Source of the DNA: Mycolicibacterium nivoides
GTDB taxonomy: Bacteria > Actinomycetota > Actinomycetes > Mycobacteriales > Mycobacteriaceae
Assembly (NCBI RefSeq): GCF_003855255.1
Contig: NZ_CP034072.1
Span: 4,645,208 to 4,709,207 of the forward strand
Reading direction: 5' to 3'
DNA length: 64,000 nt
This document shows positions 2,331 to 51,043 of this stretch, in pieces (the first letter of the stretch is position 1; each line of letters begins with the position of its first letter). A program made the translations under genes and the position numbers. A model generated the notes under the pieces. The model worked only from the letters and a program-made list of their open reading frames with translations, had not been told where the DNA came from and ran no database searches.

Positions 2331-2458
2331 GCGGCGCCAACCTCCCCTTCTCGCCCCCCTGAACCCCGTCACGTTAACCGGCGATTCGGCCACCGCGCAT
2401 CACGGGTGCTGCCGCGCGTCAATTTCGCGCCGGCGTTCATGTCGGAGGTCCCGGGCGT

Positions 2459-4312: not shown

Positions 4313-4466
4313 CTGTCCCCCTGGTTCGACGACTCTCGCCACGCTAACCGGCGAAACTGGGTGCCCGATGATCCGTGCTTCCGGCACGCCGAACCCATGC
4401 GATCATGAGGAGGTCTGCACCTCTCCAGCAGATGTCGTCCGCAATGCCGACCGCTGGAGGTTGTCT

Positions 4467-4954
4467 GTGCCCATCCCGAAACCCGCCGCGCTGACCTCCC
4501 CGGTCATCGACTGCGAGCCGCCCGCGCTGCCGCTGGGAATGCCACCGGCTCCAGTTGTCGTGCCGGCCGCCTGCCAGGCACCGACAGTGCTGCACGGGCA
4601 TACCCCGCGCCGGTCGCGCCTGGTCGGCGCCGAGCCGGAACGGCAAGTGCAGCCCGGTGCCGCGCAGTTCGCCGACATGGCACTGCGCCGGGTCCTCGAG
4701 GTCGTCGACCGGCGCAGGCCTCCGGCCCAGCTGAGGTCGTTGATGAGCCAACTGCTGGTCGACGCGGTCGTCGCCGCCGCCGGGGCACGCCACCGGACCA
4801 CGGCGAGCCTTCGCCGGGTGGGACTACGCCCGGCAGCCTCAGCCGAGGCTGCCGAGCTGTTCGCCACCTACACCCGCGGAGCGCGGGTGCGCGCCATCGC
4901 AGGGCGTATCGAATTACGCAGTGGCCGTTGGCAACTCACTGCGCTACAGCTGGG

Positions 4955-4958
<4 letters not shown>
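4467..4958 (+). CDS. Rv3235-like conserved actinobacterial protein
   Basis: The 163-residue product is rich in Ala, Arg and Pro. The first ~50 residues are low-complexity and proline-rich; the rest (from about residue 60) looks like a compact helical/strand domain with [23 protein letters not shown] and a basic WQLTALQLG end. The GTG at 4467 is chosen because GGAGG sits 6 bases before it, although the frame is open from 4368. It overlaps the 3' end of secA1 by 4 bp, tail to tail, the position held by Rv3235 in M. tuberculosis. The function is unknown; similar small proteins are often found beside secA in actinobacteria, which hints at a link with export but does not show one. Confidence 0.75.
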
Positions 4959-7801
<2,843 letters not shown>

Positions 7802-7904
7802 GCTATTTCCCCTGTGGGTTCGATGGATCCCGTGGGTGGGATCGGTCGGGCTTGTTGGCCTCCATCGTAGGTGACCGGTCGAAGTCGCTGGTTCTGCTGG
7901 CGCG

Positions 7905-7954
7905 AAGAAGCAAAAACGCACCCCGGAATGCTCCGAGGTGCGGTTTTGCTTCTT
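7905..7954 (-). terminator. Terminator hairpin between hpf and secA1
   Basis: An 18-bp inverted repeat with one mismatch (7905-7922 pairs with 7937-7954) closes over a loop that itself contains CGGA/TCCG. The stem carries an A-run on one arm and a T-run on the other, so it can act as an intrinsic terminator in either direction. It lies 20 bp after the hpf stop codon and about 100 bp before the secA1 start. Confidence 0.85.
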
Positions 7955-7973
7955 GGTCTCTGGCCGAGACGCG

Positions 7974-8657
7974 CTAAGCCAGGCGGATCAGCCCGTAGTC
8001 ATAGGCGTGGCGGCGATATACCACCGACGGCCGGTCACTCTCCTTGTCGTGGAACAGGAAGAAATCGTGCCCCACCAGCTCCATCTCGTAGAGGGCGTCG
8101 TCGACGGTCATCGGCGTCGCCGTGTGTTCCTTGGTCCGCACGATCCGGCCCGGCTCATGGTCGTCGAGGCCGTCGGCCAGTCCGGCGTCGGCCGTCGCCG
8201 TCGGCTGGTTCTCGAAAAGCGTCTCGTGTGCGGTCGCTTCGGCCAGCGAGACCGGGGTTTTGTCCCCGTAGTGGATCTTGCGGCGGTCCTTGCTCTTGCG
8301 CAGCCTGCTCTCGAGTTTGCCGGCCGCTGACTCCAAAGCGGCGTAGAAGCTGTCGGCGCAGGCCTCGCCGCGCACCACCGGTCCGCGGCCGCGGGCCGTG
8401 ATCTCGACGTGCTGGCAGTTTTTGCGCTGACGGCGGTTGCGTTCGTGGTCGAGCTCGACGTCGAACAGGTAGATGGTGCGGTCGAACCGCTCCAGGCGCG
8501 ACAACTTCTCCGAGACGTAGATACGGAAGTGGTCCGGAACTTCGACGTTTCGACCCTTGACCACAACCTCTGCGTTCGGCTCCGGGGTGGCGTCGCCGAC
8601 CTGCTCGTCGGGGTCGACCACCATGGTGGCGCTTGTTTCCGGGGAATGGGTTGACAT
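7974..8657 (-). CDS. hpf: Long-form ribosome hibernation promoting factor
   Basis: The 227-residue protein has an N-terminal S30AE-type RNA-binding domain from about residue 25 ([22 protein letters not shown]) and a C-terminal dimerisation domain ([27 protein letters not shown]...). Long HPF binds the 30S decoding region and either pairs 70S particles or stabilises idle ribosomes in stationary phase, hypoxia or zinc starvation. It matches Rv3241c/MSMEG_1878 by position. The ATG at 8657 is favoured, but in-frame starts also exist at 8690 (MRVTTE) and further up, and an AGGAGG sequence sits near 8784-8790, so the true start needs N-terminal data. It is followed by a strong terminator. Confidence 0.9.
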
Positions 8658-8728
8658 ACTCGGCAACTCGTTTCTCTCAGTTGTCACACGCATTGTGCGT
8701 GCCCTACTTCTCAACGAATCGTGATGGT

Positions 8729-8763
8729 GCCGATGGGCCGAATAGTTTGCTCCACCCATCGGC
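8729..8763 (-). promoter_or_regulatory. Hairpin in the hpf leader
   Basis: A perfect 9-bp inverted repeat, GCCGATGGG (8729-8737) with CCCATCGGC (8755-8763), lies about 70 bp upstream of the chosen hpf start. On the hpf transcript it directly follows an AGGAGGTGAGTACC stretch that looks like a ribosome site but has no well-spaced start codon. It could fold in the 5' leader of the mRNA. No known riboswitch was recognised. Confidence 0.4.
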
Positions 8764-8953
8764 GAAAGGTGTCGGGTACTCACCTCCTACCGTTTGGCGG
8801 TGAAGTGGCGCTGCGTTGCGGGAGCGCCGCCGTGAGTCATTCACGGGTGGTTGCTGCCGACGGTAGTCCGTGTTCACCCACTCGTGCCACCAATTTCAAA
8901 TACGTGTTTTCAGTTCTTCATGTGGGTTTGATCCCACCGAAATGACAGACGCG

Positions 8954-9583
8954 TCAGGCGTGCGAAAGCGCCAGCACAGCAGACACCTGCGCCCCGGCGC
9001 GGGTGAGCATCCGCACCGATTCGGCTGCCGTAGCCCCGGTGGTGACGATGTCGTCGACCAACACCACCTCGCCCTCGATCGGTCTGATCAGACGGACCCG
9101 GCCGGAGATGTTGCGTTGGCGTGCGGCGCCCGACAGGCCCACCGAATCACGCACCCACGGCCGCAGGCGCAGGGCCGCCACGACGTGGACGCCGGGCAGC
9201 CCGGCCGCCGCCGAGGTCGCGATCCGGCCGACCGGATCACCACCGCGACGACGCGCTGCGGCGCGCCGGGTGGGAGCCGGTACGACGGTCACCGGAGTGC
9301 CGATGATCCCCCAGGTCAGCAGGTGCCGCAGGCCGGTGTTCAGCGCGCCGGCCAGCGGGGTGATGAGGTCGGTCCGACCGTGCTCCTTGACCGCCACGAT
9401 GGCGCGCCTGCGGGCACCGGCGTGGCGGCCGAGCGCGAAGACCGGGACTCCCGGATCGGCTCGCGGGGTGAACAGGTGCGGCTCGTCGTCACCGACCCGG
9501 AGTTGTCCGGCGCACGACGCGCACCATCTGGTCGAGCGCGCGCCGCAGCCGCCGCACTCCAGCGGCAGGATGAGGTCGAACAT
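8954..9583 (-). CDS. ComF-family phosphoribosyltransferase-like protein
   Basis: The 209-residue product begins with a CGGCGARSTRWCASC zinc-ribbon-like cysteine cluster (residues ~10-24) and ends with a type I phosphoribosyltransferase domain; the PRPP-binding loop is VVLVDDIVTTGAT near residue 175. ComF proteins are linked to DNA uptake in competent bacteria, but in mycobacteria (Rv3242c) the role is not established. The gene follows the Rv3243c-like gene by 10 bp and is probably co-transcribed with it. A 296-bp gap without a recognisable gene separates it from hpf and holds the hpf leader hairpin. Confidence 0.88.
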   Translation of the reverse strand: MFDLILPLECGGCGARSTRWCASCAGQLRVGDDEPHLFTPRADPGVPVFALGRHAGARRRAIVAVKEHGRTDLITPLAGALNTGLRHLLTWGIIGTPVTVVPAPTRRAAARRRGGDPVGRIATSAAAGLPGVHVVAALRLRPWVRDSVGLSGAARQRNISGRVRLIRPIEGEVVLVDDIVTTGATAAESVRMLTRAGAQVSAVLALSHA

Positions 9584-9593
9584 GCGACGGTGC

Positions 9594-10493
9594 TCAGCCC
9601 GTCAGTGCGGTGAGCACGTCGCCGAACGCCCCCTGGGCCAGTACCGAGATGGTCTGGGTCTGCGGGTCCAGCGAGGTGATCCGCTGCAGGTCACGGTTCC
9701 AGTGGTAGAGGTCGCCGCTGATCGGGCCCGGGTTGCCGGCACTGAGCGTCTGGCACAGGTGCGCCATGGCGTTCACCGCCGCGAGCAGCGGGCCCGCGGC
9801 GTGTATCGGATGGACCATGAGCAGGTTTCGCGACGGCGCGCCGACGATCGCGCCGTGCGGCGTCACCGGCAGGTAATCGGGCACCAAGGCCCCGATGTCG
9901 AGGATCTTCGAGCCGACGAACACCGATTCGCCTGCCAGGATCGAGAATTCCGCATCATCGTCACTGCGGCGGATGACCTCGTCGATCGGCTCGGCGACGG
10001 TGTTGCACCGACCCGCCTCGCGCAACCGGCCGGCGTCCCGGGCGCAGACCTGGTCGGTGTTGAGGTAGGCGACGACGTCCGGGTAGTCGATACACAGCAC
10101 CTCGGTCAGGCCGTCGGCGACAGGCCATCCGTACGACAGCATGCCCCCTGGTGAGGACTCGACCTGTTCGGTCGACAGCACCCTGGCCCGCACCCGTTCG
10201 AGCAGTTCGGAGAAGTCCATGTCCTCGACCCTGGGGCGGTCCCGCGCGGCGAGCATGTCCGCGAAGTGCTTGTCCACCAGTGCGGGCCAATCCTGTTGCC
10301 CTGCCTTGCGACACGTGCGGACCAGGTTGTCGAGGCCGTAACTCGACCCGTCCGAACACTTCACCGTGGCGCCGTCCGCGGCGAACACCGCCTCGACCCG
10401 ACGCGCCGCCAGCACCTGCAGCGTGAGGCGCCGAATATGCGCCATCTCGTCGGCCGTCATTGCCGGATACGCGTTGTCACGATCTTCTGCCAT
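9594..10493 (-). CDS. Rv3243c-like conserved hypothetical protein
   Basis: I do not recognise a functional family. The 299-residue product has no signal peptide or membrane segment. It starts with a helical, charged region (MTADEMAHIRRLTLQVLAA), has a central SYGWPVADGLTEVLCIDYPD stretch and a mixed alpha/beta second half containing LLMVHPIHAAGPLLAAVN. It lies 10 bp upstream of comF and 100 bp downstream of lpqB, the position of Rv3243c in M. tuberculosis. The 100-bp gap after it contains three GCCTCAG copies but no clear terminator. It may be co-expressed with lpqB or comF; nothing in the sequence fixes its role. Confidence 0.75.
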   Translation of the reverse strand: MAEDRDNAYPAMTADEMAHIRRLTLQVLAARRVEAVFAADGATVKCSDGSSYGLDNLVRTCRKAGQQDWPALVDKHFADMLAARDRPRVEDMDFSELLERVRARVLSTEQVESSPGGMLSYGWPVADGLTEVLCIDYPDVVAYLNTDQVCARDAGRLREAGRCNTVAEPIDEVIRRSDDDAEFSILAGESVFVGSKILDIGALVPDYLPVTPHGAIVGAPSRNLLMVHPIHAAGPLLAAVNAMAHLCQTLSAGNPGPISGDLYHWNRDLQRITSLDPQTQTISVLAQGAFGDVLTALTG

Positions 10494-10593
10494 GCCGCCC
10501 CCTCGGTCGCCCTCAGCCTATGTCTGACCGTGAGCGGGTAACGACACCTCTTTTTTGCAGAGCCTCAGAGCCTCAGCCGATTTGGCCAATGCC

Positions 10594-12354
10594 TCAGCCG
10601 GGCAGCACGGGCAGCGAGCCGGGAACCATCAGTGGGCGCACCTCGACCCACCCGGGGTTGTCCTCACTGACCGACGCGGACAGCTGCATCACACCGCGTT
10701 GGTCGGCGACGTACACCGTCGACGGATTGGCGGCCACCGTGCCCACCGGGGCCACAAGATTTCGGCTGGGCCCGTCCGAATTCACCCCGTCGAGGTTGAC
10801 GTACGACACCGGGTGCGCCGGATCGGTCCGGCTGACCACGATGTCATCGCCGGTGCGCCAGGACAGCGACACCACGGTGTTGCCCAGGCCGAAGCCGAGG
10901 CGCCGCGGGTAGGTCAGCAGGAACTGTCCCTCGGGGGTTCGCTCGACCCCGGCCAGGATCACCTGTCCGCCGATCACCATCGCCGCCCGGGTGCCGTCGC
11001 GAGAGAGCTGCAGTTCGGTTATCGGGCCCGGGAAGCGGGTGGCCACCGCGGCCACGTCGACCGGAATGCGGGCCGGCACACCGGATGCGTCACGGATGGC
11101 ACGCACCACGTTGGCATCGTCGACCACCACCCATACCGCGTCGTCGAGGGACCAGCTCGGCCGGGTCAGGGTTCGGCCCTCGATGGCCATGGCGGTGGGC
11201 CCGCCCAGCGGTCCCATCCACAGTGAGGCGGCGGTCGCCTCCGGGGCATCGGGCAGCACGACCACCGACGCCGCGTTCTGACCGTTGCGCGACACCGCAG
11301 CCGACTTCTGATTGGGTGCCGAACCGAAGGCCCCGGGCACCCGGCTGGTGCTCTGCCCGTCCAGCGCCACCAGTGAGCCGCCCACCAGCGCATGCAGGCC
11401 CGCGGCGGCACCGGGCACCGCGCCCGGATCCGTGGCCGCGACATCGGAGGTTTCCCATCCGTCGGCGAAGCGGTCGTCCAGCGGCGCGCCGTCGGCGTTG
11501 ATCACGTAGGGCCCGCTGATCCCGGCCCGCGACAGGGTCCAGATGACCTGTGCGGCAAGCAGTTGACGACTGTGCGGATCAGTGGTCGAGAGGTTCTGGA
11601 GATCGATCCGGGCACCGCCGTAACCGCGGCCCACCCCGGTCTTGCCACCGTCGGCCCGGGTTACCGGACCGCGTAGCTGCAGCGGCGCTTCGAGCAGGTT
11701 GCGCACCGCTCTGGACATCTCCGGACGTGGCCCGGCCACCAGTTTGGAGATCAGTTCGGTGGCCAGCTGGTCGGGGTCGGAGACCGCGACGTAGCGCGGG
11801 TCGGGCACGACGGTGGTTCCGGTCGGGTCGACGAAGTAGAGCGTGTTGCGCTTGTAAGTCGACTGAAACTGTTGCCAGTCGAGGAAAACTCCGTTGGGCA
11901 GCTTGTCGATGCGCCAGCCGCCCGGGGTCTGGACGAGCTCGATGGGACCGGGGTCGGGCAGTGCCCCCTCCCCTGTCTCGAACACTCCCATATCGGACAG
12001 GGACCCGAGGATGTCTGCCCGCATGTTCACCGAAACCCGGTCCGAGCCACGGGTTTCGACGAACACCACCCGGTCGAGCAGCAGCGCGCTGCCGGCGTCG
12101 TCCCATGAGCTGGACGCCGACTCGGTGAGGAACTGCCGGGCCGCCAGATGCCGGTTTGCGGGATCGGCAGTGGCCTTGAGGAATTCACGCAGGAGCACGT
12201 CGGGGTCCATCCCCGGCGCCGGCTTGGGCAGATTCGGTGGTGCCGGCTTGTCGACCGTGCCGATCGCCTGCGGGGAAGACGAATTCGGAATTCCCGCGCA
12301 CCCGGACACCAGAACTACCAGACCGACGATCATCACCGTCAGCAGGCGCTTCAC
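10594..12354 (-). CDS. lpqB: Lipoprotein LpqB, partner of MtrAB
   Basis: The 586-residue protein opens with a lipoprotein signal: basic KR, a hydrophobic core and the lipobox LVSGC with Cys19. The mature part has a GerMN-like domain (about residues 60-280) and a C-terminal beta-propeller-like region with repeated [17 protein letters not shown] strands. LpqB sits on the outer face of the membrane, contacts the sensor domain of MtrB and tunes MtrA phosphorylation, affecting cell division and envelope integrity. It overlaps mtrB by 4 bp (ATGA), so it is translated as the last gene of mtrA-mtrB-lpqB. The length is normal for the family. Confidence 0.95.
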
Positions 12355-14012
12355 ACGTTCTCCTCCGCATGCTCCCGGTCACGGTTGGGACGCTGCCGCT
12401 GCTTCTGCTGCGGTGCAACGGGTTTGAGTGGCAGCGGGCTGGTGGTCACCTTGTGGCCACGCACCAACGGAAGCGTCAGGCGGAAGCAGGCGCCCTTGCC
12501 CGGCTCACCCCAGGCCTCCAACCGGCCCTGGTGCAGGCGCGCATCCTCGATGCTGATGGCCAGGCCGAGCCCGGTGCCACCGGAACGCCGGACCCGCGAC
12601 GGATCCGACCGCCAGAAGCGGCTGAACACCAGTTTCTCCTCGCCGGGACGCAGGCCGACGCCGTAGTCGCGGACGGTGACCGCGACGGTGTCCTCGTCGG
12701 CGGCCATCCGGATTCGGACCGGTTTGCGTTCGGCATGGTCGATGGCGTTGGCGATGAGATTGCGCAGGATCCGTTCCACCCGGCGAGGATCCACCTCGGC
12801 GATCACCTCGCCCTCGGGCATGTTGACGTCGAGCTCGACCTCGGCGTCGGCCGCCAAGTGCCCCACGTTGTCCAGCGCGCTCTGCACTGTGGAACGCAGA
12901 TCGACCGACTCCACCGACAGCTCGGCGACACCGGCATCGTGACGGGAGATCTCCAGCAGATCGGCCAGCAGGGTCTCGAAGCGGTCCAGTTCGTTGACCA
13001 TCAGTTCGGTGGACCGGCGCAAGGCAGGGTCCAGATCCTCACTGTGGTCGTGGATCAGGTCGGCCGCCATGCGCACCGTGGTCAGCGGGGTGCGCAGTTC
13101 GTGGCTGACGTCAGAAGTGAAGCGGCGCTGCAGGTTACCGAATTCCTCGAGCTGCTGGATCTGGCGCGACAAGCTCTCGGCCATGTCGTTGAACGACACC
13201 GCCAGCCGGGCCATGTCGTCCTCACCGCGCACCGGCATCCGCTCGGTGAGGTGGCCTTCGGCGAACCGCTCGGCGATCCGCGAGGCCGAGCGCACCGGCT
13301 GCACGATCTGCCGGGCCACCACCAGGGCGATGGCGGCCAGCAGACCCAACAGCACCACGCCGCCGGTCGCCATGGTGCCGCGCACCAGCGAGATGGTGCT
13401 TTCCTCGTTGTTCAGCGGAAAGATCAGGTACAGCTCAAGATTGGGCACCGACGAGGACGCCGGGCTGCCGACGATCAACGCCGGCCCGGACAACGCATCG
13501 GTATGCACCGTGGCGTACTGGTAACTGACCTGCCCGGCCTTGACGAAGTCCCGCAACGCCTTCGGCACCTGCTGCACCGGCCCGGCCGCGGCGGCTTCAC
13601 GCGGGCCGTCGCCGGGAACGATGAGCACCGCGTCGAACGCCCCCGCCACATCCGCACGGGCGTCGGCCTTGCGATCGATCAGGGTGTTCCGGGCCAACTG
13701 CAGGCTGCTGTCGAGCGAGCGGCTCTCCTCACCACCGACGATGCCGCCGACGGTGATGCGGGCGCGCTCGACCTCCTCGGTGGCAGCCTTGACCTTGACC
13801 TCGAGAATGCGGTCGGTGATCTGGCTCGTCAGCACGAAACCGAGAACCAGGATGACGGCGAGCGACAGCCCCAGCGTCAGCGTGACCACCCGCAGTTGCA
13901 GCGAACGACGCCACACCATGCTCAGCGCTCTGCCGAGCGTCCCCAATCCGCGCAACAGTGGGCCGGAACCTCCCCAGCGACCACGGATGCGCCGTCTGGA
14001 GCTGAAGATCAC
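12351..14012 (-). CDS. mtrB: MtrB sensor histidine kinase
   Basis: The 553-residue kinase has a transmembrane helix near residues 40-65, an extracytoplasmic sensor region, a second helix near residues 205-230, a HAMP linker ([17 protein letters not shown]), a HisKA dimer helix with the phospho-His in [11 protein letters not shown] near residue 305, and an ATPase domain with [10 protein letters not shown] and the GTGLGLAI loop. MtrB phosphorylates MtrA and controls septation, replication origin binding and cell-wall enzymes. It overlaps mtrA and lpqB by 4 bp each, giving one coupled operon. All key residues are present. Confidence 0.96.
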
Positions 14013-14695
14013 GGGGGTCCGGCCTTGTATCCCACTCCTCGAACGGTCAACACCACCTGCGGGTTCTCCGGGTCTTTCTCAACCTTGGCCCGCAACCGCT
14101 GGACATGCACGTTCACCAAACGGGTGTCAGCGGGGTGGCGATATCCCCACACCTGTTCGAGCAGCACATCACGAGTAAACACCTGGCGTGGTTTGCGTGC
14201 CAGCGCCACGAGCAGATCGAACTCCAGCGGCGTCAGCGAAATCTGCTCGCCCTGACGGGTCACCTTGTGGGCCGGCACATCGATCTCGACATCGTTGATC
14301 GACAGCAGCTCGGCGGGCTCGTCCTCGTTGCGGCGCAGCCGCGCGCGCACGCGGGCGACCAGCTCCTTCGGCTTGAACGGCTTCATCACGTAGTCGTCGG
14401 CGCCGGATTCCAGGCCCAGCACCACGTCGACGGTGTCGGTCTTCGCCGTCAGCATCACGATCGGCACGCCGGAGTCGGCACGGAGCACCCGGCACACGTC
14501 GATCCCGTTCATGCCGGGCAGCATCAGGTCCAGCAGGACCAGATCGGGCCGTAGTTCGCGGACCGCGGTGAGTGCCTGGCTGCCATCTCCGATGACCGCC
14601 GTGTCGAATCCCTCACCACGCAAGACGATGGTGAGCATCTCGGCCAGCGATGGGTCGTCGTCGACGACAAGGATCCTTTGCCTCATAGTGTCCAT
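14009..14695 (-). CDS. mtrA: MtrA response regulator (OmpR/PhoB type)
   Basis: The 228-residue regulator has a receiver domain with the acidic cluster VVDDDPS and phospho-acceptor Asp56 in [10 protein letters not shown], the switch Thr in VMLTAKTD, Lys in [12 protein letters not shown], then an OmpR-type winged helix (residues ~130-225) with the recognition region near [19 protein letters not shown]. MtrA is essential in M. tuberculosis and binds promoters such as ripA, fbpB, dnaA and the origin. The length equals that of known MtrA proteins. It is the first gene of the operon; the 52-bp gap after tmk probably holds the promoter. Confidence 0.97.
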
Positions 14696-14747
14696 GGTGT
14701 CACCCGATCGCGATAAAACCGGGGTACCACACGCGGGTTTCTCCGCT

Positions 14748-15380
14748 TTATCTGCTGCTTAGCCGACCCGCGAGGGCGTCCGGGTCCACATCCGGGCCCG
14801 CGATGGCCCATCGCCCGCACCAGTCGGCCGCAGCCAGCCCGGCGTAGACCTCACCGGTGCGCTGCTGCAGCCCGCCGTCGCGCTCGTACGCGTCTCTGGC
14901 GCGATCGGCCTCGGTGTTGGCCCGGTGCTCGGCGCGCTGCGCGGCCAGCTCGGTCGGGACGTCGAGCAGCACCTGCCAATCCGGCCTGGGCAGTTTGAGG
15001 CGGTCGAACTCGAGCTCACGCACCCAGGCCACCACTTCACCGTCGGCACCCTGGTGCGACCGGGCCGCGCTGTAGGCGGCATTCGAGGCGACGTAGCGGT
15101 CCAGGATGACGACGTCGTAGGCGCCCTGCAGGTGTTCGATCTCCTCACGCGCGCCGGCCCGGTCGAGCGCGAACAGGGTGGCCATCGCGTAGATCGAATC
15201 GGCCAGGTCCCCGTGCGCCCCGTGCAACGCCTCGGCGGCCAGATCGGCGGGCACCGAGTGGTGATAGCGCGGGAACGCCAGGCTGCCGACGGACTTGCGA
15301 TCGGCCTCGAACGCCGCCCGCAGTCCGTTGGTCAGCGTACGTTTGCCTGCGCCGTCGACACCCTCGATCGCTATGAGCAC
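14748..15380 (-). CDS. tmk: Thymidylate kinase
   Basis: The 210-residue enzyme phosphorylates dTMP to dTDP. The P-loop is GVDGAGKRT at residues 7-15, unusual for Arg in place of Lys/Ser neighbours but typical of mycobacterial Tmk. The DRYVASNAAYSAAR segment near residue 95 matches the DRY/H substrate motif, and the lid region is rich in Arg/Glu near residue 150. The start at 15380 is the first in-frame ATG. It lies just upstream of mtrA in the same direction, as Rv3247c does with Rv3246c. Regulation is not visible. Confidence 0.95.
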   Translation of the reverse strand: MLIAIEGVDGAGKRTLTNGLRAAFEADRKSVGSLAFPRYHHSVPADLAAEALHGAHGDLADSIYAMATLFALDRAGAREEIEHLQGAYDVVILDRYVASNAAYSAARSHQGADGEVVAWVRELEFDRLKLPRPDWQVLLDVPTELAAQRAEHRANTEADRARDAYERDGGLQQRTGEVYAGLAAADWCGRWAIAGPDVDPDALAGRLSSR

Positions 15381-15454
15381 GCGGGCAGCCTAACGCGGGC
15401 GTACGTTCCCGCAAAGATAGCCATGCTTAGCATTTCTTCCGGTACCGTCGCTCG

Positions 15455-15715
15455 GTGCCCGAGATCGCCGACGGTCGGCGTGCTGCTCGGCAGCGGATGG
15501 GACGACTGGGACGGCAAGGCCAATGCCCCGCCCCCAAGCCCCCGCTGTTCGGACTGCACCCGCTCGCGACGGGTGACGCGCTGAGCGTTACCGCACAAAG
15601 CGCCGGCGTCACCAAGCTGCGCGGCATGCTCAAGACCGCCGCCGTCAACGACATCGTCAAGTAGCTGCAGGGGTTGACCGCCGGCAGCAAGAGCAAGCAC
15701 GACGACATGAAGTAG
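15455..15715 (+). pseudogene. Possible gene relic interrupted by an in-frame TAG
   Basis: From a GTG at 15455 a frame runs to TAG at 15662-15664 and then continues in the same frame for 16 more codons (LQGLTAGSKSKHDDMK) to a second TAG at 15713. The part around AQSAGVTKLRGMLKTAAVND and the Lys-rich end look protein-like, but the N-terminal half is Arg/Pro-rich and unlike a normal start. I do not recognise the family. It lies in the ~475-bp stretch between tmk and the MmyB-type regulator that has no other gene. It may also be a spurious frame. Confidence 0.3.
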
Positions 15716-45950: not shown

Positions 45951-46613
45951 GTGTCCTTCGCCGATGCGACAATCGCTCGATTGCCGCGATTCGTCCGTCC
46001 CTACGCCGAGCGGCATCACGAACTGATCAAGTTCGCGATCGTCGGCGCGACGACGTTTGTCATCGATTCGGCGATCTTCTACACCCTCAAACTCACGGTG
46101 CTGGAGCCCAAGCCGGTCACCGCCAAGATCATCGCCGGCATCGTCGCGGTCATCGCCTCCTACATTCTCAACCGGGAATGGAGCTTCCAGAATCGCGGCG
46201 GCCGCGAGCGCCACCACGAGGCCCTGCTGTTCTTCGCGTTCAGCGGCGTGGGTGTGATGCTGTCGATGCTGCCGCTGTACTTCTCCAGCTATGTGCTGGG
46301 GCTCCGGGTTCCCGAGGTTTCGCTCACAGTCGAGAACATCGCCGACTTCATCTCGGCCTACATCCTCGGCAATCTGCTGCAGATGGCGTTCCGGTTCTGG
46401 GCGTTCCGCCGCTGGGTGTTCCCCGACGAGTTCACCGACAAGCCCGATCTGGCTCTCGAGTCCACGCTCACCGGCGGCGGCTTCGCCGAGGCGTTCGAGG
46501 ATCACGCCGAGCGCAAGGCCGCCAACGTGACGCCGCTACGCCGGCCGAGCCGCCGTTCGAAGGCGCGTCAGCTCGGTGATTCTTCGGACCCCAGGGTGTC
46601 GAAGACTTCGTGA
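45951..46613 (+). CDS. GtrA-family membrane protein (Rv3277-like)
   Basis: The 220-residue protein has four hydrophobic helices (about residues 25-45, 55-75, 100-120 and 135-155) typical of GtrA, which moves or presents polyprenyl-linked sugars across the membrane in cell-envelope glycosylation. The GTG start follows the divergent purK promoter gap. The C-terminal 60 residues are charged and end ...SDPRVSKTS. The last 87 bp belong to a direct repeat copied again at 50484-50573; the antisense of the same bases still encodes the end of the PH-domain protein, showing that the two genes once overlapped tail to tail. Confidence 0.88.
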   Translation: MSFADATIARLPRFVRPYAERHHELIKFAIVGATTFVIDSAIFYTLKLTVLEPKPVTAKIIAGIVAVIASYILNREWSFQNRGGRERHHEALLFFAFSGVGVMLSMLPLYFSSYVLGLRVPEVSLTVENIADFISAYILGNLLQMAFRFWAFRRWVFPDEFTDKPDLALESTLTGGGFAEAFEDHAERKAANVTPLRRPSRRSKARQLGDSSDPRVSKTS

Positions 46614-46616
46614 TAC
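46527..46616. repeat. Left 90-bp direct repeat bounding the inserted module
   Basis: These 90 bases match 50484-50573 at 80 positions with no gap (offset 3957). On the plus strand they encode the end of the GtrA protein, which is in use. On the minus strand they keep YHEVFDTLGSEESPS and a TGA stop, the exact C-terminus of the PH-domain protein, now detached from its gene. Confidence 0.93.
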
Positions 46617-46863
46617 CGCGGGGGTGACCCCACACGAAACGATGGGCCGGTTCAACGACGGTCGAGCCGCGCGAAGCGGGTTTCCGCGCCAGCAGCAAGA
46701 TGGCTGCGGCGATCGGAATTACCAGTAGTGCACCGACGGTTGGCCGACGGCGTTGTTGTGCGCCGCCCGACCCACCGCCGTTGGTGACGAATCGTTTTCA
46801 GGTTCAAGCACCGGAACCTCCAGCACCTAGGCGAAGTGCGCCGTCAGTCCCGCATCGTTCCGG

Positions 46864-47037
46864 TCAGTTCTTGAAGGCGTCCTTGACCTTCTCGCCGGCC
46901 TGCTTGAGATTGCCCTTGGCCTGGTCCTTCTGTCCCTCTGCCTGGGTGTCCCTGTCGCCGGTGGCCTCCCCGACCTTCTCCTTGGCCTTCCCAGCCACTT
47001 CTTCGACCTTGTTCTTGGCCTTGTCTACGGCGCTCAT
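46864..47037 (-). CDS. CsbD-like stress protein
   Basis: This 57-residue, highly charged protein is made of Lys/Glu-rich amphipathic stretches: a MSAVDKAKNKVEEVAGKAK start, then EKVGEATGD, a Gln/Asp middle, and a ...AGEKVKDAFKN end, the CsbD family pattern. CsbD proteins are induced in general stress under alternative sigma factors; their molecular job is unclear. A GGGAG site lies 6 bases before the ATG. A SigF-like promoter lies about 100 bp upstream. The 247-bp stretch between it and the GtrA gene shows only one hydrophobic frame (VGALLVIPIAAAILLLARK, minus strand) without a start, possibly a broken membrane-protein end. Confidence 0.88.
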   Translation of the reverse strand: MSAVDKAKNKVEEVAGKAKEKVGEATGDRDTQAEGQKDQAKGNLKQAGEKVKDAFKN

Positions 47038-47131
47038 GTGTTTCTCCCGTTTTTTGCGCTGGCCGTGCCGCGGACTCGCGACACGTAATGACGCAGCGTG
47101 CGAACGTTATTCGTCACGCTGCCACCACGGG

Positions 47132-47156
47132 ATACCCATCCCGGCAATGTCTAACC
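47132..47156 (-). promoter_or_regulatory. SigF-like promoter for csbD
   Basis: On the minus strand GGTT (47156-47153) and GGGTAT (47137-47132) are 15 bases apart. This is close to the mycobacterial SigF consensus of GTTT, then 15-17 bases, then GGGTAT, with one -35 mismatch if GTTA is read. It lies about 95 bp before the csbD start, and stress control fits the CsbD family. Confidence 0.5.
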
Positions 47157-47187
47157 ACACCCTCGGGAGATCGGCGAGGACCATCGC

Positions 47188-47214
47188 GGTTTCGCGACTG
47201 GTCAATGCGGGTAT
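47188..47214 (+). promoter_or_regulatory. Orphan SigF-consensus promoter facing the four-gene operon
   Basis: GGTTT (47188-47192), 16 bases, then GGGTAT (47209-47214) is a full match to the mycobacterial SigF consensus. It points right, into the 3' end of the minus-strand methyltransferase gene. No credible plus-strand gene follows; the best frame is ATG at about 47239 with roughly 50 codons ending before 47400 and it looks spurious. It may drive an antisense RNA or be the relic of a lost gene. 47038-47326 holds no other feature. Confidence 0.4.
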
Positions 47215-47326
47215 GTCAGGGCGACACGAAGTTGAGCCATGCCGTCGGCGGCCGCAGTCATTAGCACTGGACCGCTACCCCGGCGGCGCACCCAAGTGCA
47301 TTGGGGGCCAGTCCTATCCGCCTTGG

Positions 47327-47965
47327 TCAACCGGCACCCGGCACCCCGTCGCGCTCGGCAACGGATGCTGCGCGATGGGTGTCGAAAACCTCGATGACAA
47401 CATCGCGGTCGCGGTAGCTCCCGATCGAAATGAGCCCCGGCGTCGCCGCGATGACCCTGTTGGCCTGATCACCGGTGTGCGGATAGTCGGCCACCTCGTG
47501 ACGCCAGTGTGCCGCTATCACGGTCGCACCGCGGGCCAACTGCGGACACTCGCGGCGGAGCAGCCCGGCCAGCAACTCCTCCTCCAGGTAGTACGCCACT
47601 TCCGAGAGCACCAGCAGGTCGAAAGGTCCTGGAGGCCAAGGGTCGTCGAGCGATCCACGCACCAGAGTGACACGATCGCGCGGCCCGTCCCGGTCGCCAT
47701 CGGCACGCAGTCGCACGTCGGCGATGTCCAGAGCGGCCCCCGCCACATCCATCGCGGTGACGTGATCGCAGCGCTCGGCGAGCATCGCCGTGAGAGTGCC
47801 GATCGAGCAACCCGGCTCGAAGGCATGCCGATAGCGCCGCTGCGGCAGCATTGCCAGCGTGATCGCGTACTTGCGTTGCTCATACCAGCGGGTGGCCAGT
47901 CGCCACGGGTCCGCCGAGGTCGCGTACATACGGTCGAAGTACGAGTCGGGCAGGCGCTCTGTCAC
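47327..47965 (-). CDS. NodS-like SAM-dependent methyltransferase
   Basis: The 212-residue protein resembles NodS-type methyltransferases: MTERLPDSYFDRMYATSADPW start pattern (here VTERLPD), WYEQRKYAITLAMLP, motif I HAFEPGCSIGTLTAML near residue 50, and DLLVLSEVAYYL near residue 115. NodS itself N-methylates the deacetylated glucosamine of Nod factors. The GTG start overlaps the PIG-L stop by 4 bp (GTGA). It is the last gene of the operon GT2-acyl-CoA dehydrogenase-PIG-L-methyltransferase. The true substrate is unknown; a deacetylated amino sugar made by the partner PIG-L protein is the natural hypothesis. Confidence 0.87.
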   Translation of the reverse strand: MTERLPDSYFDRMYATSADPWRLATRWYEQRKYAITLAMLPQRRYRHAFEPGCSIGTLTAMLAERCDHVTAMDVAGAALDIADVRLRADGDRDGPRDRVTLVRGSLDDPWPPGPFDLLVLSEVAYYLEEELLAGLLRRECPQLARGATVIAAHWRHEVADYPHTGDQANRVIAATPGLISIGSYRDRDVVIEVFDTHRAASVAERDGVPGAG

Positions 47966-48741
47966 CGGAACACCATCTCCCCGACCGCGAGCAGCCGAGG
48001 CAACACGAACGGCGGCAGTACCGGGTGCACACCCGGTGCCGATGGAAGGAACTGGCTGCGGAAGCATTGCGCGGCAGCTTGTTTACGCCCCACGGCGGAG
48101 GCCGTCAACGGCACCATGAGCGCCCGATCCCAGGGCACCGCGGAGTCTCCGGGCGTCGCCCAGTGCCACATCCAGACCGGGTACTCCAGCAGAACCGCCG
48201 CGGTGCGGTGCGCAGCCGCGGCAGCAGCCCGCCCAACCGCCTCGTGATCGGGATGCCCGTCGCCGCGCCACGTCGTTGCACACCAGGTGCCAGGCGGGCA
48301 CTCCTCGAGTATCCCGGTCAGCAGATCTGCCAGCGAGTCTTGGTGGCCGGCGAGTTCACCGTCGGGCAATGCGAGGCTGATCGGCTCCCCCACACCGAGA
48401 ATCCTTGCGGCCTTTCTCAACTCGGCGCTTCGGGTGCGCTCCAGCCGGATTCGGTCGAAGGGCGTGAGACCCTCATGGGCGGCCCCGCCGTCACTGACGG
48501 ACACCACTCGGACCTCGATCCCCCGCTCCGCCAGCAGCGCCATGGTCGCCCCGAAGCCGAGGGTCTCGTCGTCGGGATGCGGTGCGACCACCACCAGGGC
48601 GGGACATGTCGTGAGGTCCAGCTCACCGAACGATCGGTCCCAGGTCGTCCAGGCGTGACCCGGGGTGCCACCGCAGCTCAGCGGGCGTGACCCGAACCGC
48701 GCTGCGTTGCCGCACGGTTCAGCGGGCTCTGCGGCTGTCAT
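47962..48741 (-). CDS. PIG-L-family deacetylase
   Basis: The 259-residue protein is a zinc deacetylase of the PIG-L/LmbE/MshB type. The metal motif is APHPDDETLG near residue 54 and the second site GHPDHEAVG lies near residue 165; SVSDGGAAHEG and TWRGDGH complete the active site. Relatives remove acetyl groups from N-acetylglucosaminyl lipids, mycothiol precursors or antibiotics. The ATG at 48741 overlaps the dehydrogenase stop by 4 bp. The N-terminal ~40 residues are extra relative to MshB. It is placed between a flavoenzyme and a methyltransferase in the same operon. Confidence 0.9.
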   Translation of the reverse strand: MTAAEPAEPCGNAARFGSRPLSCGGTPGHAWTTWDRSFGELDLTTCPALVVVAPHPDDETLGFGATMALLAERGIEVRVVSVSDGGAAHEGLTPFDRIRLERTRSAELRKAARILGVGEPISLALPDGELAGHQDSLADLLTGILEECPPGTWCATTWRGDGHPDHEAVGRAAAAAAHRTAAVLLEYPVWMWHWATPGDSAVPWDRALMVPLTASAVGRKQAAAQCFRSQFLPSAPGVHPVLPPFVLPRLLAVGEMVFR

Positions 48742-49691
48742 CGGCGCTCCCCCGCCAGTTTGCCGAGCGCGGCGAGGTCGCGCTCGGCATGGCTCTGCCG
48801 CACGTAGATCGTCAGATCCGCGACGCGACGTGCGTGTTGGGCATCCTGGCACAGCGGCGCGGGCCCGAGTGCGCGGCCCGTGCGGGTAATCGCCGCATCC
48901 ACAGCGGTTTCGGCGACGGCGCGGGTTCGCCGGGCGAGTAACTGGGCGGACCGGGAGCGATCGAAAGGGTCAGCGTCGGTCGCCTCGGCCGCCGCGACCA
49001 GCATCGCTTCGGCCGCCGCGATCGCGGCGTCGACGGCACCGAGGTGGGCCAGTACGTGCGCATCAGCTGCTCCGCGGGCGGCGCGGTCATACAGCGGTGC
49101 GGCGACTGCGCGCGCAGCACCGACCCAACACGCCGCGACGCCGATCGCACCGTGCCAGAACCCGGGGCGATCCAGATAGTCACCGGGACTACCGACGGAC
49201 ACCGCGGGCGCGCCGCTGAATTGGACCGAGCGGGTATCGCTGGCCGCCATGCCCGGATTCCTCCAGGTGCTGGGCAACGGGCGCACCCCTTTGCCGCTCG
49301 TCTCCACCGCGTACAGCGCGCGTCGGCCGTCGTCGAGGCGGGCCGTCACCAACGCGTGTGTGCAGAGGCCCGCTCCCGAGCACCACGCCTTGGTGCCCGA
49401 CAGTTTCACCGTGCCTGTTTCACCGCTTCCGGTGGTGTGCGCATTGAGGACGGCGTTCGGATCTTCGGCGGCCCACACCGCCCACAGCTGGCCTGGCGCA
49501 GGCGGTTTGGCACCCAGCTCGTCGAGGATCGCGACGGCGTCGACGTGAGCTTCCGCAAGTCGCCCGGCGACGACGTCGATCTCCGTCAGCTCCGCAAGCC
49601 GTTGCCAACGCCGCACCGTCGCACCTGAGCCCGGCAGCGGCAGGTCCAACCGGCCCGACTCCAGCCAGCTCCGAACCAAACCGGCCGTCAT
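48738..49691 (-). CDS. Short acyl-CoA dehydrogenase-like flavoprotein
   Basis: The 317-residue protein matches acyl-CoA dehydrogenases in the middle and C-terminal domains: LWAVWAAEDPNAVLNAHTTGSGETGTVKLSGTKAWCSGAG near residues 60-100 corresponds to the FAD-binding beta domain, and the last ~140 residues are helical. It is about 60-70 residues shorter than normal FadE proteins, and the C-terminal xxEGTNxIQ motif that carries the catalytic Glu is not seen. It may act on a non-CoA substrate, like other flavoproteins of antibiotic and sugar pathways. The ATG overlaps the glycosyltransferase stop. Confidence 0.82.
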   Translation of the reverse strand: MTAGLVRSWLESGRLDLPLPGSGATVRRWQRLAELTEIDVVAGRLAEAHVDAVAILDELGAKPPAPGQLWAVWAAEDPNAVLNAHTTGSGETGTVKLSGTKAWCSGAGLCTHALVTARLDDGRRALYAVETSGKGVRPLPSTWRNPGMAASDTRSVQFSGAPAVSVGSPGDYLDRPGFWHGAIGVAACWVGAARAVAAPLYDRAARGAADAHVLAHLGAVDAAIAAAEAMLVAAAEATDADPFDRSRSAQLLARRTRAVAETAVDAAITRTGRALGPAPLCQDAQHARRVADLTIYVRQSHAERDLAALGKLAGERR

Positions 49692-50437
49692 GCGGAATCC
49701 CTTTCGGCCGAACGAAATACCGACCGCGACACATCGCGGAGGTAGCCTGCGAAGCCGCCGGGCGCCCGGCCGTTTCTGCGCGCTGAGGTGGTCACCGACA
49801 GCGTCGAGTCCCGTTCTATCCGGTAGCCGGCGGTCTCGAACCTTTCGACCAACTCGACGTCCTCGCCGGTGGCCAGGGGGCGGAAACCCCCGAGCGTCCA
49901 GTACACGTCGGCACGAAAACCCATGTTGGCGCCATGGATGTGGTTGTGCCCCTTGGGTCCCCGCGCACCCGACTCGTAGGAACGCATGTAGTGCCGGACG
50001 AGCGCGACGGGGTGATGCCGCCAGTCGGTCACCCGCACCACGCCCAGCACCATGGCGGCCGCCGACGCGGTCTGCCGAAGCAGCCAGTCGGGATCCACCT
50101 GGCTGTCGGCGTCGGTGGTGGCGTACCAGGCGCGGGAGTCGTCGACGTGGTTGCACAGCGAGCGTGCATAGGCGAAACCGGCGGCCCGGCTCGCGCCGAC
50201 GTTGCCCGCCTCCACGCTGACGAAGTGAACGTCGTGACCGAACTCGCCCACCAGCTCGGCGCTGCCGTCGTCACAGGAATCCAGGACGACGACGGTCAGC
50301 ACCGGCATCGGGCAACAGGCCGCGGCCGTGGTCACCGCACGCAGGCAGCGGGGCAGAAGCGCCGCTTCATTGTGGGCCGGAATGACGATGATTGCCTGAT
50401 CAAAGGCGGTCGCCAAGTGGTTCACCCGTGCTGTCAT
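49688..50437 (-). CDS. GT2-family glycosyltransferase
   Basis: The 249-residue enzyme has the GT-A fold: AIIVIPAHNEAALLPRCL near residue 15, VVVLDSCDDGSAEL near residue 50, the DXD-like ATTDADSQVDPDWL near residue 105 and HGANMGFRADVYWTLGGF near residue 168, where the acceptor-side motif usually lies. The GTxEDVEL-like ATGEDVELVERFE follows. It belongs to the small-glycosyltransferase group without membrane helices. The ATG at 50437 is chosen; another start is at 50470. It is the first gene of the four-gene operon, and each following gene overlaps by 4 bp. Confidence 0.88.
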   Translation of the reverse strand: MTARVNHLATAFDQAIIVIPAHNEAALLPRCLRAVTTAAACCPMPVLTVVVLDSCDDGSAELVGEFGHDVHFVSVEAGNVGASRAAGFAYARSLCNHVDDSRAWYATTDADSQVDPDWLLRQTASAAAMVLGVVRVTDWRHHPVALVRHYMRSYESGARGPKGHNHIHGANMGFRADVYWTLGGFRPLATGEDVELVERFETAGYRIERDSTLSVTTSARRNGRAPGGFAGYLRDVSRSVFRSAERDSA

Positions 50438-50483
50438 GGCTGATAGATAGCCATTTTCACCGGATTTCACACCCGCTGCCGCG

Positions 50484-50573
50484 GTGAGACCGCTACGCCG
50501 GCCGAACCGCCGGGCGCAGGCGCGTCAGCTCGGCGACTCTTCAGACCCCAGGGTGTCGAAGACTTCGTGATAC
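50484..50573. repeat. Right 90-bp direct repeat bounding the inserted module
   Basis: This copy of 46527-46616 contains the live 3' end of the PH-domain gene on the minus strand. On the plus strand it keeps the GtrA reading frame for the last 28 codons, including QARQLGDSSDPRVSKTS and the TGA, but joined to nothing. The module between the copies is about 3.87 kb. Confidence 0.93.
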
Positions 50574-51043
50574 AGCAGTGAATGCACCTGCTCCACGCGC
50601 GGAATATCGTGGAATTCCAGAGGATCCTGCGACGCCGATTCGATGATCAGCGTGCCGGTGCGCATCAGCCGGTCGGTCAGCCCGTGGCGGAATTCGACGC
50701 TGTTGATCCGCGCGAGCGGGATGTCGATGCCCGAGCGGGTCAGTACCCCGTGCCGGAACATCACCCGCCGGTCGGTGATGACGAAGTGCGTGGTCCACCA
50801 GTTGAGGAACGGCCAGACCGTCAGCCAACCGACCACGACTAGCCAAATCGCCCCGATCACGATGAACAGCACGTTCTTGGCGGTGGCCTGCCAGTCCATG
50901 GTGTTGACCACGGCGGCGACGAACGCCGATGCCGCGGTCGTCAGGACGAGGACGAGGACCGCACCGATCAGACGTTTCCAGTGCGGATGCCGGTGCAACA
51001 CCACCTGCTCGTCGTTTGCCAGCACATTCTCCGGGTACCCCAC
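50525..51043 (-). CDS. Bacterial PH-domain membrane protein (Rv3278c-like)
   Basis: The 172-residue protein has two hydrophobic helices (residues ~25-48 and ~55-85) and then a bPH2-type domain from about residue 85 (HFVITDRRVMFRHGVLTRSGIDIPLARINSVEF). The family is found near cell-envelope genes but its role is unknown. It starts 9 bp after birA in the opposite sense of accD5; the two are probably co-transcribed (birA first). Its last 49 bp lie in the right direct repeat. Confidence 0.88.
   Translation of the reverse strand: MGYPENVLANDEQVVLHRHPHWKRLIGAVLVLVLTTAASAFVAAVVNTMDWQATAKNVLFIVIGAIWLVVVGWLTVWPFLNWWTTHFVITDRRVMFRHGVLTRSGIDIPLARINSVEFRHGLTDRLMRTGTLIIESASQDPLEFHDIPRVEQVHSLLYHEVFDTLGSEESPS

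What the first reader, a model, noticed from the sequence alone, without database searches (positions are those of the whole stretch)
46527..50573. A 3.9-kb module inserted between 90-bp copies of the GtrA/PH-gene junction
The 90 bases at 46527-46616 match 50484-50573 at 80 positions, without gaps. Each copy still encodes both gene ends: the left copy carries a useless minus-strand YHEVFDTLGSEESPS plus stop, and the right copy a useless plus-strand GtrA C-terminus. So the GtrA and PH genes once overlapped tail to tail and the junction was duplicated around the insert. No integrase, transposase or terminal inverted repeat lies inside. This suggests insertion through homologous ends (for example a circular intermediate or conjugal transfer of a donor that carried the same junction).
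Basis: partly seen in the sequence, partly recalled or inferred. Interest (0 to 1): 0.85.

Follow-up and report, generated by a model that had tools for sequence, protein, structure and literature searches.

The report
Gene insert flanked by duplicated overlap
In some fast-growing mycobacteria two genes whose tails normally overlap have been pushed apart by extra genes, and the shared tail was copied so that both genes stayed whole; the insert then seems to have moved between species by ordinary recombination rather than by a jumping-gene enzyme.

Summary
In detail: window 46527-46616 and 50484-50573 match at 81 of 90 positions. In 65 of 80 named mycobacterial loci GtrA and PH overlap tail to tail, in 57 by exactly 46 bp: the empty site. 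In 26 loci from other genera of the family GtrA is not beside PH, so the overlap is ancestral only within this genus. Filled sites hold varied cargo: 11 of 80 named loci, and 19 of 148 genomes by my reading. In 22 of 25 distinct filled sites the best alignment of the two tails lies exactly in the empty-site register. The window's insert is CsbD plus a GT2-ACAD-PIG-L-methyltransferase operon, also found elsewhere in other mycobacteria. A shared right border in nine alleles suggests one original insertion. Insert and flank trees conflict strongly, so the operon was exchanged between species by homologous recombination in flanking core genes. No integrase or transposase was found in the parts scanned. 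I file it as insertion with long target duplication plus recombination-driven spread. How the first duplication arose, and any circular intermediate, are not shown.

The parts
45951..46613 (+). GtrA-family gene (left flank), uses the left copy as its C-terminus
   Evidence: PF04138 E 1.9e-21
46518..46619 (.). left copy of the duplicated GtrA/PH junction
   Evidence: 88 of 102 identical to 50475-50576
46568..46615 (-). relic of the PH C-terminus (YHEVFDTLGSEESPS stop) inside the GtrA tail
   Evidence: translation
46864..47037 (-). CsbD-like gene, 57 aa
   Evidence: PF05532 E 9.1e-18
47327..47965 (-). NodS-like SAM methyltransferase
   Evidence: PF05401 E 2.5e-13; NodS chain 3ofj_A E 5.9e-7 and methyltransferase 4isc_A E 1.5e-29
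47962..48741 (-). PIG-L family deacetylase
   Evidence: PF02585 E 1.5e-27
48738..49691 (-). acyl-CoA-dehydrogenase-like flavoenzyme
   Evidence: PF02770 E 3.7e-8; chain 5xb8_A, dibenzothiophene desulfurization enzyme C, E 4.9e-7
49688..50437 (-). family-2 glycosyltransferase
   Evidence: PF00535 E 9.7e-15
50475..50576 (.). right copy of the duplicated junction
50481..50570 (+). relic of the GtrA C-terminus overlapping the PH tail and beyond
   Evidence: translation; tblastn 84% over GtrA residues 190-220 in the window's own locus L001
50525..51043 (-). bacterial PH-domain membrane protein (right flank), uses the right copy as its C-terminus
   Evidence: PF03703 E 1.6e-19

Best explanation
[quoted passage not shown] Step 1 (shown by comparison): within this genus the ancestral junction is a 46-bp tail-to-tail overlap of GtrA and PH. 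Step 2 (inferred from the duplicated relics): foreign genes entered together with a duplication of about 100 bp that contains the whole overlap, so each gene kept its own intact tail; an insertion here can leave both proteins whole only if at least the 46-bp overlap is duplicated. Step 3 (shown): the copies then decayed where no longer needed. Step 4 (shown by tree conflict): the four-gene operon in the filled allele was exchanged between species by homologous recombination in flanking core genes, with no recombinase of its own; the site also gained further cargo. The likely carrier is chromosomal conjugal transfer, which is known in mycobacteria (inferred, not tested).
For: Empty site: 57 of 80 named loci overlap by exactly 46 bp, 7 by 85, 1 by 79; 11 are filled; 4 have no GtrA in the fetched stretch, of which two (L074, L085) are filled when the same contigs are read further as L118 and L122. 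Duplication: in 22 of 25 distinct filled sites the best local alignment of the two tails has exactly the offset of the empty site, including sites with unrelated cargo, for example a PIN-domain gene between 60-bp copies at 90% in M. pyrenivorans (L086). Single origin of the operon-bearing allele: nine of nine alleles share a GGTGTG(A/G)AA border about 30 bases before GT2, and the four that keep the neighbouring stretch in comparable form (win, L032, L113, L114) share a GTT in the right relic where the left copies examined have other letters. Exchange: MT-PIGL-ACAD-GT2 place win with G020 (100/100), while purE+purK+bpl place win with M. septicum (100/100) and G020 with M. peregrinum (100/99); AU p 3e-25 for the module against G020+peregrinum and 9e-10 for the flanks against G020+win. 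G020 informative sites: 188 win-like to 6 peregrinum-like in the four genes, 22 to 68 in bpl. No integrase match listed lies in an insert; no integrase or transposase family was hit by 44 insert ORFs from the window and ten other loci (9 of the 44 hit no Pfam family at all).
Against: The first duplication event is not observed and its mechanism is unknown. The single origin is less sure for the three M. peregrinum alleles: they share the border but not the GTT, and L038 and L039 have lost that stretch. L038 has copies that match at 66 of 68 (46 of 46 in the overlap), closer than the window's 83 of 93 although the insert is the same, which points to gene conversion or a fresh duplication there. 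Three of 25 filled sites (L099, L116, L118) show no in-register match, and in several older ones it is only 14-38 bp long. Other junctions nearby also vary: bpl|PH is enlarged or rearranged in 11 of 70 loci, against 9 of 76 for PH|GtrA at the same 400-bp threshold, 3 of 76 for GtrA|purK and 0 of 72 for purK|purE, so this site is not uniquely hot. The switch inside PH for G020 rests on 9 informative sites. Not every insert ORF was scanned, and the integrase list was cut.
Confidence: 0.72

Rival explanations
1. Remnant of a site-specific integrative element whose att site is the GtrA/PH overlap. The integrase was lost, and the direct repeats are attL and attR, as for islands in the 3' ends of tRNA genes.
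For: The same point is used repeatedly with different cargo, the gene ends are restored, and the two best-preserved independent events (window group and L086) begin within about 3-6 bases past the GtrA stop.
Against: No integrase in the insert ORFs scanned or at insert coordinates in the listed part. The duplication differs in length: about 93-102 bp in the window against about 60 bp in L086, so no fixed core is evident.
Confidence: 0.12
2. Campbell-type circle: the module excises between the 90-bp repeats as a circle carrying one junction, and re-enters an empty junction by a single crossover in those 90 bp.
For: It gives exactly this structure. Empty and filled alleles are interleaved among close relatives: M. 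setense and M. senegalense are empty beside filled sisters. The near-identical copies of L038 (66 of 68) would fit a recent re-entry.
Against: In G020 the right switch lies in or near the 5' part of PH, a few hundred bases from the repeat, so flanking-gene homology was used. In win, L032, L113 and L114 the right copy keeps a change that the left copies examined lack, as expected if the pair is old and travels together.
Confidence: 0.1
3. Tandem duplication first: the overlap was duplicated by slippage, which decoupled the two genes and left a neutral spacer; foreign genes entered later.
For: One filled site is only a 203-bp spacer (L123) in which my ORF caller found no gene (it also called none in the 1.4-kb inserts L125 and L127). 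Sites holding only CsbD among the query genes exist (L041, L047).
Against: No bare tandem duplication was seen. L123 lies inside an old filled clade, so it may be a deletion derivative.
Confidence: 0.2

Closest known systems
Insertion with long target duplication (Nobusato et al., Gene 2000, Helicobacter pylori; known here from passages in PMC1643837 and PMC3154945 that describe and cite it; the 2000 paper itself was not read)
   Same: A gene block flanked by a long direct duplication of the target and visible by comparison with an empty relative.
   Different: Here the target is the overlap of two convergent genes, the cargo is metabolic and not restriction-modification, and the allele has since recombined between species.
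Hotspots of gene turnover without mobile elements, with recombination at flanking core genes (Oliveira et al. 2017, PMC5635113; passages and section 10 read)
   Same: Variable cargo between two conserved genes, no integrase found in the inserts, tree conflict between insert and flanks.
   Different: Here the exchange is seen between named species of one genus, and the duplicated overlap is an extra feature; the words 'convergent' and 'intergenic' do not occur in that paper's main text.
Distributive conjugal transfer in mycobacteria (Gray et al. 2013, PMC3706393; outline and abstract read)
   Same: A known source of large homologous replacements in this genus.
   Different: Whether it acted here was not tested.

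Membership tests
Insertion with long target duplication | direct duplication far longer than a transposon target site, flanking the insert | tested here: met
   88 of 102 bp
Insertion with long target duplication | single copy of the target in relatives without the insert | tested here: met
   65 of 80 named loci are overlapping single-copy junctions
Insertion with long target duplication | no recombinase or terminal inverted repeats in the insert (my wording; the original paper was not read) | tested here: met
   window insert:
Insertion with long target duplication | restriction-modification cargo (frequent in the described cases according to PMC1643837; not required) | tested here: not met
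   cargo is CsbD plus GT2, ACAD-like, PIG-L and methyltransferase genes
Site-specific integrative element (ICE, IME, island) | integrase gene inside the element | tested here: not met
   (list cut)
Site-specific integrative element (ICE, IME, island) | att core of fixed length in independent insertions | tested here: inconclusive
   about 93-102 bp against about 60 bp; only two well-preserved independent events
Hotspot without mobile elements | recombination in flanking core genes | tested here: met
   tree conflict and switch in or near the 5' part of PH for G020
Hotspot without mobile elements | turnover well above other junctions genome-wide | tested here: inconclusive
   four junctions of this locus compared; bpl|PH is as variable
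Transposon | transposase or terminal inverted repeats with a short target duplication | tested here: not met

The most novel reading that the evidence does not exclude
Overlapping convergent gene tails act as a recombinase-free landing site: each lasting insertion must copy the whole overlap, so the site carries a built-in record of insertion, and the copied tails provide homology for later exchange or precise removal. If this holds at other overlapping convergent pairs, it is a general rule for how bacterial chromosomes open closed gene junctions.
Probability: 0.2. Interest if true: 0.65.

Novelty: new variant of a known kind. Interest (0 to 1): 0.45.

Why it matters
It shows how a junction with no spare bases between two conserved genes can still take in foreign genes. 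It also gives a datable mark (two decaying copies of one sequence) that separates a true insertion from a lost ancestral gene. It adds a worked case of between-species exchange of a small operon in mycobacteria without a recognised mobile element, testable with strain collections of the M. fortuitum group.

Tried and rejected
Phage or plasmid origin: no phage record matches the insert DNA; 27 plasmid records match parts of it, none over 80% of the query, the best being scattered matches to the same gene families in Kitasatospora, Streptomyces and Embleya and many to CsbD alone. Integrase in the inserts: none listed at insert coordinates in 19 filled genomes (list cut); one broken integrase-like match in G085 lies about 11 kb outside its insert. 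A third copy of the junction in the genome: only a 24-bp match. Literature: no paper in the library held the term sets for the M. tuberculosis names of the flanking genes (names from the finding), for the operon or for the pair-plus-species terms; two searches listed papers whose titles and abstract starts are on other subjects, and I did not open those. The count of 81 overlaps was dropped because it included relics read as GtrA; one search replaces it. One AU test (L039 with win, L032, L038) is not used because the held group left out G020, which sits inside it. The gap-counting table was replaced by the gap-free one. My first CsbD coordinates were in the wrong frame (no match), corrected; the wrong frame also served as the CsbD query in the locus maps. 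Reading M. porcinum (L039) as a mosaic is only suggestive: its left insert genes lean to the peregrinum side (CsbD 2:8, MT 14:20, PIGL 17:28, ACAD 17:31) and GT2, PH and bpl to the win side (46:7, 9:0, 74:13), but L037 also gives mixed counts.
Full report
What was checked. The repeat can be taken to 102 bp at 88 of 102. The best other match of the left copy in the window is 47 of 90, and a search of the genome finds no third copy beyond a 24-bp match. Each copy keeps both reading frames: the left has YHEVFDTLGSEESPS plus stop on the minus strand, and the right has a GtrA C-terminus on the plus strand.

The empty site. PH was used to fetch 80 named loci, the best 80 of 506 confirmed stretches. 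Stop codon to stop codon, 57 overlap by exactly 46 bp, 7 by 85, 1 by 79, 11 are filled and 4 have no GtrA in the stretch. In 148 genomes of the genus, the window's own included, PH was found in 146 and GtrA in 147. By my reading of the two tables 19 have more than 200 bp between the gene ends. The rest overlap or lie within about 180 bp, where the GtrA match stops short of its end; the exceptions are G139 (different contigs), G111 and G115 (no PH). In 26 loci from as many genomes of other genera of the family (L133-L158; 77 such genomes were searched), no GtrA match lies within the 1.5-kb flank of PH. The overlap is therefore a feature of this genus and the filled state is derived.

The filled sites. 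Gaps between the gene ends run from 0.2 to 17 kb. Cargo includes CsbD; the window's operon; an AI-2E transporter family protein; GMC oxidoreductase, TPP enzyme, SDR and DUF421; PIN-domain genes; DUF218, GAF and GGDEF proteins; a CrcB-like protein below the family cut-off; a secretory-lipase-like protein; bacterial sugar transferase, glycosyltransferases, polysaccharide deacetylase and O-antigen-ligase-like genes. On a GtrA+PH tree of 87 loci, 25 of them filled, filled and empty need at least 10 changes. Seven named loci were represented there by unnamed copies of the same contigs; I left out L056, L080, L100 and L102, and L090 had no GtrA. One search aligned the two tails of 29 filled loci, 25 of them distinct (L111, L112, L115 and L126 repeat L033, L039, L047 and L099). 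In 22 of the 25 the best local alignment has exactly the 46-bp offset of the empty site, from 14 bp long (L128) to 104 bp (L114). In L099, L116 and L118 it does not, although the GtrA tails of L116 and L118 still look PH-like by eye.

Edges of the duplication. In the window the match runs from about 3-6 bases past the GtrA stop to about 40-50 bases past the PH stop. In L086 it starts at the same place but stops about 8 bases past the PH stop. The left edge at the GtrA stop in both events is unexplained; the differing right edge speaks against a fixed att core.

One origin, then exchange. All nine alleles that carry the operon (window, L032, L033, L034, L035, L037=L113, L038, L039, G020=L114) have a GGTGTG(A/G)AA border about 30 bases before GT2, and the right relics of win, L032, L113 and L114 share a GTT where the left copies examined differ; the three M. 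peregrinum alleles do not share it, and L038 and L039 lack that stretch. One insertion of the operon is the simplest reading. In L038 the two copies match at 66 of 68, against 83 of 93 in the window, so conversion between copies or a later re-duplication is possible there.

The trees then disagree. MT+PIGL+ACAD+GT2 (3111 columns, 9 rows) join win and G020 with 100/100. purE+purK+bpl (2487 columns, 18 rows) join win with M. septicum (100/100) and G020 with M. peregrinum (100/99). Holding G020 with peregrinum on the module data costs 311 log units (AU p 3e-25); holding G020 with win on the flank data costs 206 (AU p 9e-10); all. The groups were chosen after I had seen identity tables, so the p-values are descriptive. 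DNA identity shows the same: win and G020 share 93.8-96.0% in the four operon genes but 89.6-91.1% in purE, purK, GtrA and PH and 78.3% in bpl, while win and M. septicum share 92.7-97.1% in those five flanking genes but 88.8-92.6% in the operon. For G020 the switch on the right lies in or near the 5' part of PH: the first sixth of PH has 1 win-like to 4 peregrinum-like sites, the rest 4 to 0, and bpl beyond it 22 to 68. Homology in flanking core genes, not only in the 90-bp ends, was therefore used. GtrA tail indels give a second hint: M. porcinum and M. peregrinum share a 27-bp insertion, and with G020 a 3-bp deletion, although the flanks of M. porcinum group elsewhere; M. frederiksbergense (L045), with an empty site, also has the 27-bp insertion.

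What the cargo is. GT2, ACAD-like, PIG-L and NodS-like methyltransferase genes form a compact operon. ACAD relatives at E<=1e-20 occur in 84 of 148 genomes, 5 of them at this junction. In 5 of 8 other loci fetched, all four genes lie together in the same order; L162 has them in a different order, L164 is cut by the contig end and L159 shows only ACAD. Its product is unknown. By analogy with deacetylation plus N-methylation of amino sugars in Nod factor synthesis (established knowledge, recalled), I infer modification of an amino-sugar conjugate. That is a guess and not part of the main claim. The MT and PIG-L proteins score well below the curated cut-offs of the NodS, BshB and MshB models, so I do not file them in those families.

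Controls and limits. Junctions of the same locus in the 80 named loci: bpl|PH is changed in 11 of 70, PH|GtrA in 9 of 76 at the 400-bp threshold, GtrA|purK in 3 of 76, purK|purE in 0 of 72; loci lacking one of the two genes were set aside (10, 4, 4 and 8). The junction is variable but not the only variable one. Pfam was run on 44 insert ORFs (5 of the window, 39 of ten other loci), of which 9 hit no family; other insert ORFs were not scanned. The integrase search listed no match inside the inserts of 19 filled genomes, but its list was cut. The first insertion, its donor and its mechanism are not seen.

Place in the literature. 'Insertion with long target duplication' has been described for Helicobacter pylori and restriction-modification genes (Nobusato et al. 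2000, known here through passages in PMC1643837 and PMC3154945). Hotspots that lack mobile elements and show recombination at flanking core genes are described by Oliveira et al. 2017 (PMC5635113; passages and section 10). Chromosomal conjugal transfer with mosaic progeny is known in mycobacteria (PMC3706393; outline and abstract). In the listings of my searches I saw no paper on this junction or on duplicated overlaps of convergent genes as a landing site; I did not open most listed papers, and the library holds only open-licence papers, so this absence is weak evidence.

Noticed in passing
window 46568-46613 and 50525-50570: The overlap contains an odd palindrome (CGAAGTCTTCG); it is not kept in relatives where the PH codons change, so probably incidental.
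   Followed up: no
L086:6654-7085: In M. pyrenivorans a PIN-domain gene, preceded by what looks like a short reading frame (toxin-antitoxin-like; the upstream frame was not tested), sits between 60-bp copies (90%) of the same junction: an independent, recent-looking insertion.
   Followed up: partly
L049, L050, L077, L103, L069-L071, L076, L081, L088, L101: The neighbouring bpl|PH junction is also enlarged or rearranged in several lineages.
   Followed up: no
L114 (G020) 1298-15669: 14.4-kb version of the insert with added GMC oxidoreductase, TPP enzyme, SDR and DUF421 genes between the methyltransferase and GtrA: cargo accretion at the site.
   Followed up: partly
left duplication edge, window 46614-46619 and L086 7091-7097: Two unrelated insertions start their duplication within about 3-6 bases past the GtrA stop codon; no explanation.
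   Followed up: partly
window 47327-50437: GT2, PIG-L deacetylase and NodS-like methyltransferase together recall the enzyme set of Nod-factor sugar modification; an operon of unknown product found in many mycobacteria.
   Followed up: no
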